From NCBI RefSeq assembly GCF_022014595.1, contig NZ_CP091740.1, positions 1,600,200 through 1,664,199 of the forward strand: DNA of 64,000 nucleotides, in the 5' to 3' direction. Positions 11,126 to 46,739 of this stretch are shown piece after piece; position 1 is the stretch's first letter; each line of letters begins with the position of its first letter. Below the pieces are notes generated by a model. The model saw only the letters and a list, made by a program, of their open reading frames with translations, searched no databases and was not told where the DNA came from. The translations under genes were made by a program, and so were the position numbers. This DNA is from Solitalea lacus. GTDB taxonomy: Bacteria; Bacteroidota; Bacteroidia; Sphingobacteriales; Sphingobacteriaceae.

Positions 11126-12564
11126 GTGCGTCAGGCATGTTTAATAGCTCTAGGGTGCAAGTCCCGAACTCGCTTTGTAGTGGGAAGTGTTAGCCGACGG
11201 CAAGGGTGTCCTTCGCGAGAAGGAATCTGAAGGAAGCCCAAGGCAAACTCTCGAGCCTACGAACAGAAACTGTATAAGAGGCAGTCATGGCAGGATAAGA
11301 TTGCTAAAGAAATCAAAGTCCCACACTACACAGATGCCATGAATGTATATGCAGAGGCTACATGAGAGGAAAGCGATTAGACTTACCCTGAGAGATCTGA
11401 TAACAATCTGGCAGCGGGAGAAGCGCAACCTAAAGCGGAAACAGCTTGCAGGGATGCAAGCACTGGTGTTATCAGAAGTCAGCAGAAGCCATAGTATTCC
11501 AAGTAATGTTGGGAAAAGGGCTGAATGTTAAAATTGGCAAGGAAACAGCTAAATCATTTGAAGCGAAAAAAAAAAAAGCCGAAACACGTAAGAGAACTGT
11601 CTGCATGAGGAAAGGTCGGAAACCGAAAGTAGACTGCAGAAGGAGCTTAGCAGAAAATGAAAGAAACTGACGGAATTGCCCGAATGCGCTATCGGTTAAA
11701 GTAATGCTAGAGAGAATATTCGACAGAAGGAACCTTGAAAGAGCCCTTGTTGCCGTAGAACGCAACCAAGGGGCAGCGGGTATTGACCATCTGCAGAGCG
11801 ATGAACTTCGCCCCTATGTAAATGCCCACTATCAAGCCCTACTGAAAAGTATACTCCAAGGCACTTATGAGCCACAACCCGTGCGGAAAGTAGAAATACG
11901 CAAACCACAGGGCGGCAAAAGGATGCTAGGAATTCCTTGTGTAGTGGACAGGATGCTGCAACAAGCGGTCTCCCAATGGCTAATTCCACAGTACGAACAG
12001 GAATTTAACGAAAACAGCTTTGGTTTCAGGCCTGGTAAGAATGCCCATAAGGCAGTAATGACTGCCCAAAAGTACCTTAACACAGGCCGGGAATGGATAA
12101 TAGAGCTGGATTTGGAGAAATTCTTCGACAAGGTAAACCACCAGCAACTACTGGGTCATCAGAGGCTGGGTAAACTACTTTAAAATCGCCAATGCGAGAA
12201 GTAAAATGGAGAAACTTGATGAATGGTTAAGAACCCGATTGCGAATCAACACCTGGAGGAGATGGAAACGGATACGAACCAAAGTCTCCAACCTAATAAA
12301 ACTCGAAGTAGGAAAATCATTGGCCTATCAGTGGGGCAACACAAGTAAAGGTGCAGCCAGAGTTGCACACAGCCCCATTTTACTTAGAACGCTGAATATC
12401 AGCTACTGGAAAAAGAAAGGCTATTGGGGTTTTCAGCATTATTATTGTCAATGGCAAGCCGATGGGCAACCGTCGTTATTTTAACAAACCGCCGTATACG
12501 AGAACCGTACGTACGGTGGTGTGAGAGGACAGATAGGGAAATAATCCCTATCTTCCTACTCGAT
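11126..12564 (+). mobile_element. Group IIC intron 1, degenerate (internally deleted reverse transcriptase)
   Basis: The 5' end GTGCG fits the group II consensus. Downstream segments are group IIC domain I landmarks: AGGGTGCAAGTCCCGAAC, GGCAAGGGTGTCCTTCGCG, GGAATCTGAAGGAAGC, AACAGAAACTG. Domain V is at 12488-12520 (ACCGCCGTA paired with TACGGTGGT, carrying a CGC triad). The 3' end is CCTACTCGAT. The second intron at 43007 shares these ends, which sets both boundaries. Insertion directly after a terminator stem is the known preference of IIC introns. The RNA core looks complete by eye, but the encoded protein is broken, so mobility would need a partner reverse transcriptase. Confidence 0.85.
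11704..12484 (+). pseudogene. ltrA: Group II intron reverse transcriptase/maturase, internal deletion plus frameshift
   Basis: The N-terminal part reads at 11704-12183. It begins MLERIFDRRNLERAL and has RT blocks NQGAAGID, GGKRMLGIPCVVDRMLQQAV, NSFGFRPGKNAHKAV and WIIELDLEKFFDKVNHQQLL. Around 12150 the frame shifts directly into the maturase domain, read in frame 2 as YWVIRGWVNYFKIANARS and on to QPSLF, ending at 12484. Against the intact 468-residue relative at 45002, roughly 190 residues are missing, including the catalytic YADD block and thumb. The maturase X domain is kept. It cannot be an active enzyme. A run of 12 A at 11566-11577 lies in the upstream intron RNA. Confidence 0.85.
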
Positions 12565-42970: not shown

Positions 42971-43004
42971 AAAACGGTGTAGTATTTTACTGCACTGTTT
43001 TTTG
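42971..43004 (+). terminator. Terminator hairpin that marks the site of group II intron 2
   Basis: AAAACGGTGTAGTA (42971-42984) pairs with TACTGCACTGTTTT (42988-43001), 14 bp with two G-U pairs, followed by TT. The group IIC intron begins at 43007, 5 nt beyond the stem. Confidence 0.8.
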
Positions 43005-43134
43005 TTGTGTGCCGTGCATATCTATAAACTAGGAGGTGCAAGTCCTCTATGGGGGTCGGTAGTTACCAACCATTAGCCAAGAGCAAGGGTGTCCGTTGCG
43101 AAGCGGAATCTGAAGGCCGTATGTTTGTAAAGGA

Positions 43135-43200
43135 ATAAGTTCCAGGAAGTTATGTAAATTTAAGAAAGAACCCCTAAAATTTTATAACACTGGAACTTAT
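43135..43200 (+). repeat. Inverted repeat overlapping the IS transposase start
   Basis: ATAAGTTCCAG (43135-43145) and CTGGAACTTAT (43190-43200) are perfect 11-nt complements. The right arm includes the first two bases of the ATG at 43199. In RNA this would place the start codon at the base of a stem. Confidence 0.7.
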
Positions 43201-44278
43201 GCAACCACAAGTTAATCAATTAGATTTTAGCGGTCAAAACATTTATGTTGGTTTTGACGTGCACTTAAAAAGCTGGCAGGTTACCGTTATGACTGAACTG
43301 CTCACCCATAAAACCTTTTCGCAGCCACCTAAACCCGAAGTATTACACCAGTATCTCCGGCAGAATTTCCCCGGCGGCACCTATCATTCCGCCTACGAAG
43401 CAGGCTTCTGCGGCTACTGGATCCATAACCGCTTGGAGGCTCTGGGCATTCACTCCATCGTGGTCAATCCTGCCGATATTCCCACCACCGATAAAGAAAA
43501 AGTGCAAAAAGAGGATTCCAGGGATAGCCGTAAAATCGCACACTCATTAAGAAGTGGCGCCTTAATCCCGATTTATGTTCCTTCCAGTAAAACCCTAGAG
43601 GACCGTTGTTTAGTTCGCACCCGGTCCATACTGACCAAGGACCTTGCCCGGTATAAAAACCGGGTAAAATCGTTCCTGTACTTTCATGGCATTGAACTAC
43701 CTGCGCCCTTCACCAAAAAACAGTCCCACTGGTCGAAACCTTTTGTTGATTGGCTGGAAAGCATCGCTATGGCTGAGCAGAGTAGTAAAACGGCCCTGCA
43801 GGCCATGATTTTAGAAGCGAAACATTTGAGAGCCTCTGTATTGCAACTCACCCGGCATTTACTAGAGCTATCAAAAACAGGTACTTACCAGGAAGCCATC
43901 GCTTTACTGCGAAGTATCCCTGGCATCGGATTATTAACGGCCATGACCTTATTAACCGAGCTGGAGACGATTAACCGGTTTAAAAACACGGATCAACTCT
44001 GCAGTTTTATAGGACTCATCCCCTCGACGCATTCAAGTGGGGAAAAAGAACTAGCCGGTACTATCACCCGACGGGGGCATAGCGTGCTGCGCAGCGCCCT
44101 GATTGAAAGTGCATGGGTAGCCGCACGCCTGGATCCGGCACTGACTAAAAGTTTTCATGAGTATTGCCGGCGAATGGAACCGAATAAGGCCATCGTAAGA
44201 ATAGCCCGGAAATTACTCAACAGAATCAGGTATGTATTAATAAACAAACAAGAATATGAGTGTGCAGTGGTTAAATAA
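43199..44278 (+). CDS. IS110-family DEDD transposase (recombinase)
   Basis: 359 residues. The N-terminal RuvC-like DEDD domain has Asp20 (YVGFDVHLKSW), Glu67 (YEAGFCGYW), and Asp106 with Asp109 (KEDSRDSRKIA). The C-terminal Transposase_20 domain begins at LLRSIPGIGLLTAMTLLTEL (about 237) and contains SFIGLIPSTHSSGEKE, whose serine before the glycine (Ser280) is the likely nucleophile. IS110 recombinases insert DNA with an RNA guide encoded by the element. No classical DDE triad is present. Reading frame and motifs are intact, so it may be active. Confidence 0.93.
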   Translation: MQPQVNQLDFSGQNIYVGFDVHLKSWQVTVMTELLTHKTFSQPPKPEVLHQYLRQNFPGGTYHSAYEAGFCGYWIHNRLEALGIHSIVVNPADIPTTDKEKVQKEDSRDSRKIAHSLRSGALIPIYVPSSKTLEDRCLVRTRSILTKDLARYKNRVKSFLYFHGIELPAPFTKKQSHWSKPFVDWLESIAMAEQSSKTALQAMILEAKHLRASVLQLTRHLLELSKTGTYQEAIALLRSIPGIGLLTAMTLLTELETINRFKNTDQLCSFIGLIPSTHSSGEKELAGTITRRGHSVLRSALIESAWVAARLDPALTKSFHEYCRRMEPNKAIVRIARKLLNRIRYVLINKQEYECAVVK

Positions 44279-44291
44279 AACTAAAACGCCA

Positions 44292-44451
44292 TATAAAAAC
44301 ATCCTTTTAATCTGAGACTGATAACACGCTTCCTGCAGTGCTGGTCATTCTGTATCTGCTATCTGAAGGCTACAGCTCACTATCTATAAAAAATTAAACA
44401 CGGCATTGCAGCCCGATTTACCGGTTCTGCTAATAGAAGGATGTTTTTATA
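44292..44451 (+). repeat. Long-range inverted repeat flanking the guide loops
   Basis: TATAAAAACATCCTT (44292-44306) and AAGGATGTTTTTATA (44437-44451) are perfect 15-nt complements. The right arm is also used by the second guide loop, so the two pairings exclude each other. Confidence 0.75.
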
Positions 44452-44455
44452 GGCT
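44307..44455 (+). ncRNA. Candidate bridge (seeker) RNA with target- and donor-binding loops
   Basis: Two successive hairpins with internal loops can be drawn. Loop 1: outer stem 44313-44320/44373-44379 with one bulge, inner stem GCAG (44335-44338)/CTGC (44356-44359). Its right strand ATCTGAAGG (44361-44369) equals the left target flank 43108-43116, and its left strand GCTTCCT (44328-44334) complements AGGAAGC across the right target. Loop 2: outer stem CTATAAAAA (44384-44392)/TTTTTATAG (44444-44452), inner stem GCAG (44408-44411)/CTGC (44427-44430). Its right strand ATAGAAGGA (44433-44441) equals the element's right end 44692-44700, and its left strand ACGGC (44400-44404) complements GCCGT at the left end. 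Ends of the RNA are not known. Confidence 0.72.
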
Positions 44456-44537
44456 TTTAGTTCATTGAAAAGACAGGTGTGTCTGAAGATTCAGGGCAAG
44501 AGAGTTTTCTTTAGCCATTTAGGACAATGAATACAGC

Positions 44538-44564
44538 AAAAAAGCCCCTGTCATTGTGGGGCTT
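44538..44564 (-). terminator. Terminator-like hairpin facing the minus strand in the IS end
   Basis: AAGCCCC (44542-44548) pairs with GGGGCTT (44558-44564). On the minus strand the stem is followed by a run of six T, while the plus-strand side has no T tract. It could stop transcription entering the element from downstream. Confidence 0.5.
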
Positions 44565-45001
44565 CAAAGCTATATTCACCGTCATAAATCCTATTGCTGG
44601 TGAGTTGCTCTCCAGCAGCGCCCACTTCCTCTTCGGATTTATATCACAAAGGTAATCATTAAAAAAACTTCCAGATCTCTTGCTTTACAACATAGAAGGA
44701 AGCTTGAGGCAAATCCCTGAACCGAGGCACACGAACCCTATCAGGCATATCCAGCAGGATGAGATTGCAACACAAATCGAAGTCCAATAACTACCCGGAT
44801 ACTGGAGTGTAAATAAGGCGGTTACATGGGGAGAAAGTGTATAGGTTTACCACGGGAGGTCTGACAGACGTGCGGAAACAAGCAGTATGAAACACGGCTA
44901 ACAATTGCTGTCAGAAGTCAGCAGAGATCAAAGTACGCTGCTACGAGCTAGCAGGGGAAGGGTCGAATCTTAAGAGGTGAGCATCAAATGAAGGTTACTG
45001 T

Positions 45002-46408
45002 ATGAATGGTAGAAAGCAGAAAACGGAGCAAGACACCTGGCAGAGCGGAACTAGGTCGGCAACCGAATCAAGCTCTGGAGGGCAGACATATCTATGGATG
45101 ACTGAAAAAGGAAACACCAACACAACGCAAGGGCAACAAGCCCAACTTTTGGAGTATATACTCTCACCATCCAACCTTAATGCGGCCTACAAACAAGTTA
45201 AGCGTAACGATGGATCAGGCGGGGTTGATGGGATGAGTGTGGAAAAGCTCTTACCCTACTTACAATCCCATCGAGAAGTATTGCTTCATTCACTACAAAA
45301 TGGGAGGTACAAGCCTCAAGCTGTTCGCCGGGTTGAAATACCCAAAGAGAACGACAAAAAGCGAGCTTTAGGCATCCCTACGGTAGTGGATAGAGTCATT
45401 CAGCAGGCAATCACCCAACAATTAACACCTATTTACGAAAAACAGTTCTCGTCCAACAGTTACGGTTTTCGTCCAAAACGCAGTGCTCATCAGGCCATAA
45501 AGCAGTGCCAAACCAACGCAAACGAAGGTTATCGTTACGTTGTGGACATGGATTTGGAGAAATTCTTTGATATTGTTAACCAAAGCAGGCTGATAGAGAT
45601 TTTATCCCGAACCATTGAAGATGGCAGGGTAGTATCATTGATACATAAATACCTAAAAGCAGGCGTAATGGTACAGGGAAAATTTCAAGAGACATCGATG
45701 GGAGTTCCGCAAGGAGGAAACCTAAGTCCGCTGTTGAGCAATGTAATGCTCAACGAACTGGACAAGGAACTAAAGGAAAGAGGACATCGTTTTGTCAGAT
45801 ACGCTGACGACTGTATGGTATTCTGTAAAAGCCGCCGAGCCGCCCAGAGGGTGCTTGTCAGCCTTACCAACTACATCGAACAAAAGCTTTATCTGAAAGT
45901 AAATAGAGAGAAAACCACAGTTGCACACATCAAGGACGTTAAGTTCTTGGGGTATGGATTTTACTTCAACAAAAATGGTTGCAAAATGCGCGCCCATAAG
46001 AAAAGTGTTGAAAAGATGAAAGAGAAAATCCGAGAACTGACCTCACGGAGCAACGGATGGGGCAATGAACGCCGAAAGGAAGCAATAAGACAGTACATCA
46101 CAGGCTGGCTTAACTATTTTCAGCTGGCAGACATGAAAGGATTGTTGGAACGCATAGATGAATGGTATCGAAGAAGAATCAGGTCATTGATATGGAAACA
46201 ATGGAAAAGTATCAAAACCCGAATTAGGAATCTGATAAAACTGGATATCCCGAAAAACAAGGCAAAGGAATACGGCAACACAAGGAAAAGCTACTGGCAC
46301 ATAGCTAATAGTCCAATCCTTAGCAGAAGTATCACCAATGAACGCCTTAAGCAGTCGGGTTACCTGTTCTTTACTGACTACTATCAAAAATTGCGTTGTG
46401 TAAATTAA
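45002..46408 (+). CDS. ltrA: Group IIC intron reverse transcriptase/maturase
   Basis: 468 residues. RT blocks are RNDGSGGVDGMSVEKL, KRALGIPTVVDRVIQQAI, SSNSYGFRPKRSAHQAI, VVDMDLEKFFDIVNQSRL, SMGVPQGGNLSPLLSNVML and the catalytic RYADDCMVFCKS. Thumb and X (maturase) regions follow with YITGWLNYFQLADMKGLLERIDEWYRRRIR and YWHIANSPILSRS. There is no HNH endonuclease domain, as is usual for class C introns. It needs its RNA for splicing and for reverse transcription into target DNA. Unlike its partner at 11704 it is complete and could in principle mobilise the broken intron. Confidence 0.95.
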   Translation: MNGRKQKTEQDTWQSGTRSATESSSGGQTYLWMTEKGNTNTTQGQQAQLLEYILSPSNLNAAYKQVKRNDGSGGVDGMSVEKLLPYLQSHREVLLHSLQNGRYKPQAVRRVEIPKENDKKRALGIPTVVDRVIQQAITQQLTPIYEKQFSSNSYGFRPKRSAHQAIKQCQTNANEGYRYVVDMDLEKFFDIVNQSRLIEILSRTIEDGRVVSLIHKYLKAGVMVQGKFQETSMGVPQGGNLSPLLSNVMLNELDKELKERGHRFVRYADDCMVFCKSRRAAQRVLVSLTNYIEQKLYLKVNREKTTVAHIKDVKFLGYGFYFNKNGCKMRAHKKSVEKMKEKIRELTSRSNGWGNERRKEAIRQYITGWLNYFQLADMKGLLERIDEWYRRRIRSLIWKQWKSIKTRIRNLIKLDIPKNKAKEYGNTRKSYWHIANSPILSRSITNERLKQSGYLFFTDYYQKLRCVN

Positions 46409-46739
46409 GAAACCGCCGTATACCGAACGGTACGTACGGTGGTGTGAGAGGTCGGAAAATGAAATAGGAGGAAAACCTATTTTATTTTCCTCCTACTCGA
46501 TTTGACTAAAGAAGGATTCTGATTAGGGAGAATTAACAATATAATAACAAGTTAATTAAACAATATTAATTTATTGAAGATAAATTGTTTATATGGTTTT
46601 GAATACTCACTAACCTAAAATATTTTGTCGTATCGAGCCCATTTAAATGTCGTTTTGAACCTGTTTTTGGTAAATATTTTAGCGTAGGTTTGTCATAACA
46701 ATAAAATATCTATTCACTCATTATTTCTGAAAAATAAAT

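What the first reader, a model, noticed from the sequence alone, without database searches (positions are those of the whole stretch)
44307..44455. Bridge-RNA candidate with readable target and donor guides in an IS110/IS1111-type element
The 3' noncoding end folds into two internal-loop hairpins with the same plan: outer stem, left guide strand, inner GCAG/CTGC stem, right guide strand. In loop 1 the right strand (44361-44369) is a 9-nt identity to the left target flank, and the left strand (44328-44334) is a 7-nt complement across the right target. In loop 2 the right strand (44433-44441) is a 9-nt identity to the element's right end, and the left strand (44400-44404) is a 5-nt complement of its left end. 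The same geometry in both loops is hard to get by chance. That IS110-family recombinases use such RNAs is established; this RNA, its guides and its target are read here by eye.
Basis: partly seen in the sequence, partly recalled or inferred. Interest (0 to 1): 0.92.

Follow-up and report, generated by a model that had tools for sequence, protein, structure and literature searches.

The report
Jumping gene guided into group II introns
A small bacterial jumping gene carries an RNA whose loops spell out its landing site and its own end; in relatives the landing-site loop changes together with the landing site, and in this genome it points at a stretch shared by several group II introns.

Summary
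The window holds a 1,583-bp IS1111-type element (43117-44699) with a DEDD/PF02371 recombinase. Its downstream non-coding end folds, by comparison of 18 relatives, into two hairpins with guide strands in internal loops. The donor loop's left strand is only weakly supported. An 84%-identical second copy in the same genome has new target guides and a matching new site. Eleven near-identical copies share the site CTG(A/C)AGG: eight lie in domain I of three types of group II intron (8 of 16 motif-bearing introns occupied), one at the end of a probable transposase gene, one elsewhere, one inside another copy's own target loop. RNA-guided IS1111/IS110 elements are established, so this is a new member of a known kind with an unusual target. 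In passing: the element also carries a conserved pseudoknot RNA module that recurs beside transposase genes of unrelated types in Bacteroidota and matched no Rfam family in the loci searched. Expression of either RNA was not testable here.

The parts
43117..44699 (+). whole IS1111-type element, 1583 bp (ends ambiguous by the 3-4 nt AGG/AAGG present at both junctions)
   Evidence: comparison of 11 copies; occupied intron L010 against empty introns L081 and L083, no mismatch in the compared 1150 nt 3' of the site
43120..43132 (+). left subterminal inverted repeat TATGTTTGTAAAG; holds TATGTTTG (-7-like box)
   Evidence: sequence; circle-junction scan
43199..44278 (+). 359-aa DEDD recombinase
   Evidence: PF01548 E 2.2e-11, PF02371 E 4.7e-25; NF033542 202 bits, cut-off 140; GLIPSTHSSG motif in the ORF
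44284..44458 (+). guide RNA (seekRNA/bridge RNA) region as modelled
   Evidence: alignment A1, fold, pair count, model R2
44312..44380 (+). hairpin 1 (target loop): outer stem 44312-44321/44373-44380, inner stem GCAG 44335-44338 with CTGC 44356-44359
   Evidence: helices 1 and 2: 4 and 6 pairs with changes on both sides
44328..44334 (+). target guide, left strand GCTTCCT, complement of the right half of the target AGGAAGC
44361..44369 (+). target guide, right strand ATCTGAAGG, identical to the left half of the target
44384..44452 (+). hairpin 2 (donor loop): outer stem CTATAAAAA/TTTTTATAG, inner stem GCAG 44408-44411 with CTGC 44427-44430
   Evidence: helices 3 and 4; the outer helix 3 shows no change on both sides, helix 4 shows 4
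44400..44404 (+). donor guide, left strand ACGGC, complement of the element's left end
   Evidence: weak in relatives
44433..44441 (+). donor guide, right strand ATAGAAGGA, matches the element's right end
44683..44699 (+). right subterminal inverted repeat CTTTACAACATA and right end GAAGG
43007..46501 (+). host group II intron interrupted by the element in domain I; maturase ORF 45002-46408; 3' limit approximate
   Evidence: RF02001, RF01998, RF00029; TIGR04416 430 bits; 5' end by comparison of copies
44502..44654 (-). second structured module, read on the minus strand: TACCTTTG box 44654-44647, outer stem and H-type pseudoknot 44642-44584, terminator-like hairpin with T run 44564-44538 (9-nt loop; not reported by the consensus scan), ATGGCTAAAGAAAACTC 44518-44502

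Best explanation
The region is the guide RNA (seekRNA or bridge RNA) of an active or recently active IS1111-type element. The recombinase binds the RNA (inferred). Hairpin 1 holds the target: its left strand pairs with the top strand of the right half-site, its right strand with the bottom strand of the left half-site. Hairpin 2 does the same with the abutted ends of the element circle (shown by covariation for its right strand only). Strand exchange takes place in the shared AGG core and leaves no duplication (inferred from the literature; the junctions fit). The guides read CTGAAGG^AAGC, part of a domain I stretch shared by three group II intron types of this genome, so the element is found mostly in introns. 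Because the inner stem next to the left guide reads CTGC, the DNA of the target loop itself reads CTGCAGG^AAGC on the other strand, and one copy has inserted there.
For: Guides track flanks across relatives. The divergent copy L018 has new target guides (AACCT, ATAATTAGG) and a site to match, TAATTAGG^TT, with unchanged donor guides. Structure: 96.8% of cells paired, 14 of 33 pairs with changes on both sides, 0 of 500 shuffles on both measures. Model R2 finds the RNA in 12 of 26 distant elements at E <= 0.001 (26 of the 35 distant loci were given). The donor right strand matches the right end over 4.30 of 5 nt against 1.38 for other elements, n = 23, 0 of 100,000 (read by eye). All 11 insertion sites read CTG(A/C)AGG at the left junction. 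8 of 16 introns with the site are occupied, all 16 matching RF02001; 0 of 7 exact CTGMAGGAAGC sites outside introns and outside the element are occupied. The joined ends give TTG-N20-TATGTTTG in 16 of 17 relatives, as expected of a circle that makes its own promoter.
Against: No expression data. The single-sequence fold differs. Right flanks: own is best or tied-best in only 12 of 18, and some matches are near background (L021 left 4 nt; L034 and L035 5 nt on both sides). The permutations ignore kinship of the elements. One measure, further pair types, is not clear of its shuffles (32 against 28.7; 22 of 500 reach it). The donor left strand: own mean 3.41 nt, others 2.91, 77 of 100,000 permutations, and the signal comes from four related elements; one strand (L028) was mis-picked by the script. 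No Rfam family matches. Two of the 11 sites (L014, L016) fit the right guide poorly.
Confidence: 0.94

Rival explanations
1. The 3' end is conserved RNA or DNA with another role (for example a mere end-binding site for the recombinase), and its matches to flanks are chance or target sequence carried along.
For: The minimum-energy fold of the single sequence is different; some relatives match only near background length; the donor left strand is weak.
Against: Guides and flanks change together over 18 elements, 0 of 100,000 permutations; the paired stems covary while the guides vary with the site.
Confidence: 0.03
2. The intron preference is not targeting: the element entered one group II intron once, and the copies were carried by intron retrohoming.
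For: The introns of the window and L015 are identical in the compared parts and both carry the element; nine intact copies, the window's included, are identical and the other two differ from it by 0 and 1 base.
Against: Carrier introns fall into three type A lineages that differ from one another by 55-95 of 1150 nt, plus two other intron types, all with the same insertion point; the intron of L010 has no mismatch to two empty introns over 1150 nt. The guides spell the site.
Confidence: 0.08
3. The preference for introns is a by-product of their copy number and match length: any repeated sequence that fits the guide would do.
For: The genome holds 16 introns with the site (8 occupied) against 7 other exact 11-letter matches outside the element; 3 of 11 insertions are not in introns.
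Against: 0 of those 7 sites are occupied, against 8 of 16 introns; but the 7 lack the GGAAT upstream that the introns share, or most of it, so match length explains this equally well.
Confidence: 0.4

Closest known systems
IS1111-type elements with seekRNA (ISEc11, ISKpn4, ISPst6, ISPa11; PMC11187229)
   Same: downstream non-coding RNA, subterminal inverted repeats, GL-P----SG recombinase motif, order of strand matches, no target duplication; some known targets are themselves repeats (attC, REP)
   Different: target is a group II intron motif; one copy inserted in its own target loop; Bacteroidota-type promoter pattern (recalled consensus) at the joined ends
IS621 and other IS110 bridge RNAs (PMC11208160)
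   Same: two loops, one for target and one for donor, pairing with both strands of each
   Different: in the IS110 group the RNA mostly lies upstream of the recombinase gene; the reversed order of strand matches is reported for ISEc21
ISEc21, an IS110-type element aimed at IS3-family transposase genes (PMC11187229)
   Same: a guided element that lands in other mobile elements
   Different: ISEc21 is of the IS110 type with an upstream RNA and aims at a protein-coding motif

Membership tests
IS1111 group of the IS110 family | DEDD (PF01548) plus PF02371 recombinase | tested here: met
IS1111 group of the IS110 family | GL-P----S(t)G motif in the C-terminal domain (as in PMC11187229) | tested here: met
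   GLIPSTHSSG in the ORF, by eye
IS1111 group of the IS110 family | longer non-coding region downstream of the recombinase gene | tested here: met
   421 nt downstream against 82 nt upstream, from coordinates
IS1111 group of the IS110 family | subterminal inverted repeats of 7-17 bp (range) | tested here: met
   TATGTTTGTAAAG / CTTTACAACATA, differing by one inserted base (by eye)
IS1111 group of the IS110 family | insertion at a specific site without added bases | tested here: met
   occupied L010 against empty L081 and L083
IS1111 seekRNA / bridge RNA | match to the top strand of the target lies 5' of the match to the bottom strand | tested here: met
IS1111 seekRNA / bridge RNA | guides change with the target in relatives | tested here: met
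IS1111 seekRNA / bridge RNA | donor loop, right strand, follows the element's right end | tested here: met
   strands read by eye
IS1111 seekRNA / bridge RNA | donor loop, left strand, follows the element's left end | tested here: inconclusive
   own 3.41 nt, others 2.91, n = 17
IS1111 seekRNA / bridge RNA | RNA is made, processed and bound by the recombinase | not testable with these tools
   needs RNA sequencing and pull-down
IS1111 seekRNA / bridge RNA | circular intermediate | not testable with these tools
   only indirect: promoter-like pattern across the joined ends in 16 of 17

The most novel reading that the evidence does not exclude
The element is an RNA-guided parasite of another RNA-based mobile element: its guide is fixed on a stretch of domain I shared by group II introns of this genome, so each such intron is a landing site. 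It carries a second, undescribed pseudoknot RNA module that also lies beside transposase genes of unrelated types in other Bacteroidota (IS3-like, IS481-like, IS66/Mutator-like, IS30-like), perhaps a shared regulator of transposition.
Probability: 0.5. Interest if true: 0.72.

Novelty: new member of a known kind. Interest (0 to 1): 0.5.

Why it matters
It gives a natural, well-replicated example of guide and target changing together in an IS1111 clade of Bacteroidota, with empty and occupied sites, a retargeted sister copy and a self-insertion in one genome. That makes the rules of guide length, core and mismatch tolerance directly testable. The choice of group II introns shows an RNA-guided DNA element living on a retroelement. 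The self-insertion shows a built-in hazard: the DNA that encodes a guide strand is always a half-site for it.

Tried and rejected
Rfam gave no match at the guide RNA or the pseudoknot module (window; seven module loci, whose five weak hits lie elsewhere) and none at gathering level in 15 loci with relatives or copies. The consensus scan of 43000-44800 found no terminator and one weak sigma-70 promoter, fewer than in shuffles; it allows loops of 3-8 and so passes over the 9-nt-loop hairpin at 44538-44564. The viral-contig scan found no relative of the recombinase, and two exact patterns of the pseudoknot module found nothing there; plasmids gave no match to the module. The single-sequence fold was set aside for the comparative one. 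My regular expression for the donor loop failed, so the donor strands were read by eye with both strands in view; 22 of the 35 distant loci plus the window were used (near-duplicates, L051 and L071, where I saw no clear donor strand, were left out), and all five letters agree in 13 of 23.

Rows left out: L029 (no right end found), L036 and L037 (contig ends) are not in alignment A1. One search lacks L019, L026 and L028 on the left side (contig ends) and L029 on the right. For L023, which has two target hairpins, the second was used, a choice made after seeing that it fits; with the first the overall result is the same (0 of 100,000) but its own matches fall to 4 and 4 nt.

It also left the donor left strand untested; it is now tested and weak.

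Literature: no paper in the library holds 'IS110', 'bridge RNA' and 'group II intron' together. 23 hold 'group II intron', 'insertion sequence' and 'IS110' (15 listed). 7 hold 'IS1111' and 'group II intron'. None of these was opened, so an earlier report of such an insertion is not excluded. For the pseudoknot module searches gave one paper (listing seen, a marine organism's RNAs) and none. Of PMC11187229 I saw the abstract, part 1 of 4 of the Results, sections 9, 12 and 13, and passages; of PMC11208160 the abstract, the opening of the text and passages. The Bacteroidota promoter consensus (TTTG-N19-21-TAnnTTTG) and the names IS3-like, IS481-like and IS30-like are recalled or my reading of Pfam hits.

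Full report
The sequence. The element runs from 43117 to 44699, 1,583 bp. Its left end is CCGTATGTTTGTAAAG and its right end CTTTACAACATAGAAGG, with AGG or AAGG at both junctions. The 359-aa recombinase at 43199-44278 has PF01548 and PF02371, passes the NCBI model for IS110-family RNA-guided transposases (202 bits, cut-off 140) and carries GLIPSTHSSG, the IS1111 form of the SG motif described in PMC11187229.

Copies in the genome. There are eleven near-identical copies and one 84% copy, L018. Nine, the window's included, are intact and identical over all 1,583 bp. The outer L017 copy is interrupted but has no mismatch in its two parts. The inner L017 copy differs at one base. The eleven insertion sites all read CTG(A/C)AGG at the left junction. 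Eight lie in group II introns, each matching RF02001: the window, L009, L010, L012 and L015 in type A; L013 and the outer L017 copy in type B; L011, a weaker match of 53 bits, in type C. L016 lies within the last 13 or so codons of a reading frame that looks like a DDE transposase (PF01609, 19.2 bits, below the cut-off of 23). L014 lies in no reading frame longer than 35 codons. The inner L017 copy lies in the target loop of the outer copy, in opposite orientation: its site is CTGCAGG^AAGC, the complement of the left guide and inner stem.

Occupied and empty sites. The genome has 25 places with CTGMAGGAAGC: 10 are the element's own target loops, 8 are empty introns (all match RF02001) and 7 are other sequences by their context, all empty. 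With the eight occupied ones this makes 16 introns with the site, 8 of them occupied. The pattern read backwards occurs once. The type A lineages are the window with L015 (no mismatch), L010, and L012 with L009 (5 mismatches); between lineages 55-95 of 1150 nt differ, and L010 has no mismatch to the two empty type A introns (one or two gap columns there come from my cut point). With types B and C this makes at least five separate hits on the same point, by my count. Some occupied introns may still have moved with the element inside; the data cannot exclude that for the window and L015.

The test across relatives. Each element's left guide strand was compared with its own and with all other right flanks, and each right strand with left flanks, by longest exact match. 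Right side, n = 18: own mean 7.39 nt, others 3.87. Left side, n = 16: own 6.12, others 3.49. No permutation of 100,000 reached either. Own flank is best or tied-best in 12 of 18 and 14 of 16. A set without near-duplicates gives 7.33 against 3.65 (n = 15) and 6.50 against 3.40 (n = 12), again 0 of 100,000. Examples: L021 GGAATGCA, L028 AGTTCGTGA, L024 AAGACAAT with CCGATAG.

The donor loop. In distant elements the five letters after ATA in the donor loop follow the letters after CATA at the right end (GAAGG, GGAGG, GCAGT, AAAGA, AAAGG, ACAGG, AGAGT among them): mean common prefix 4.30 of 5 against 1.38, n = 23, 0 of 100,000, all five equal in 13 of 23 (read by eye). The left strand is another matter: against the left end its own mean is 3.41 nt, others 2.91, n = 17, 77 of 100,000 permutations; four elements reach 5 nt, the rest 2-3.

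Structure. On 18 sequences the two-hairpin structure has 96.8% of cells paired (shuffles 91.4) and 14 of 33 pairs with changes on both sides (shuffles 6.2), 0 of 500 each; the count of further pair types is reached by 22 of 500. Sliding partners by 1-3 columns drops pairing to 35-51%. The donor hairpin's outer stem is 100% paired but has no change on both sides. A covariance model finds the RNA in 12 of 26 distant elements at E <= 0.001 and not in two other loci of this genome fetched around further PF02371 hits (L096, L097).

Circle promoter. Joining right and left ends gives TTG-N20-TATGTTTG in 16 of 17 relatives with both ends, always with a 20-nt spacer. This fits the recalled Bacteroidota promoter and the published finding that a circle junction makes a promoter.

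How it compares. Of the defining features of the IS1111 group and its seekRNA that could be tested, all were met except the donor left strand, which is inconclusive. Elements aimed at mobile or repeated DNA are known: attC sites, REPs, IS3-family transposase genes. An aim at group II introns was not found, but the listed papers were not opened.

A second RNA module. Between the guide RNA and the right end lies a conserved structure, read on the minus strand: a TAnnTTT box, a 7-bp outer stem enclosing an H-type pseudoknot, a hairpin with a T run, then ATGGCTAAGAAAAC. In 18 IS110-family elements (plus-strand alignment) 94.4% of cells pair and 11 of 18 pairs change on both sides, 0 of 500. In 21 minus-strand sequences, 16 from IS110-family elements and 5 from other loci, it is 91.5% and 11 of 17, 1 of 500. 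In both, the inner helix of the pseudoknot hardly varies, so covariation supports the other two helices only. Upstream box and downstream T run exceed base-shuffled controls: strict TAnnTTTG in 10 of 20 IS110-family loci (shuffles 1.4) and 8 of 33 others (1.3); T run in 18 of 20 (9.1) and 28 of 33 (14.8). Models find the module in 56 of 385 genomes of the class, 24 of 399 of the family (R3) and 8 of 395 of the phylum (R1), own genome included each time. Of 56 loci examined, a pattern placed the module in 48, some doubtfully. There, 12 loci hold one cluster of transposases (IS66/Mutator-like by its representative) and 7 another (IS3-like); in 15 of these 19 the gene converges on the module from 85-112 nt away. 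Three loci have an IS481-like gene just ahead of the module on the same strand, and L104 an IS30-like gene behind it. Its function is unknown; a small regulatory RNA is a guess.

Verdict. A real, well-supported IS1111 guide RNA: a new member of a known kind with an unusual target and a self-insertion.

Noticed in passing
window 44502-44654, minus strand; also L102-L108 and L119-L175: A conserved pseudoknot RNA module (TAnnTTT box, pseudoknot, terminator-like hairpin, ATGGCTAAGAAAAC) is shared by this element and by loci with unrelated transposases in Bacteroidota; 56 of 385 genomes of the class have it, and Rfam gave no match to it in the window or in seven further loci.
   Followed up: partly
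L023 4093-4191 and 4237-4335: A relative has two tandem target hairpins (73% identical, 144 nt apart); only the second fits its own site (8 and 6 nt, against 4 and 4 for the first). Could be a way to change targets.
   Followed up: partly
L050 2640-2741, L051 2648-2773: Two distant relatives also carry a repeated target-hairpin unit (76-79% identical). In L051, by eye, one hairpin's left strand and the other's right strand seem to fit the site.
   Followed up: no
L017 (own genome 849703-851282): A copy of the element sits inside the target loop of another copy, which breaks that copy's guide RNA.
   Followed up: yes
window 43007-46501 and 11209-12564: Group II introns of at least three types occur in this genome; type A copies follow T-rich, terminator-like hairpins by eye.
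   Followed up: partly
L029, L030, L031, L032 (flanks): Four relatives from different genomes share nearly the same left target, TCCG(C/T)AGG after AAG or AAA, and three of them (L029 has no right end) GCAGCGGC on the right, in similar surroundings; no Rfam family in these loci at gathering level.
   Followed up: partly
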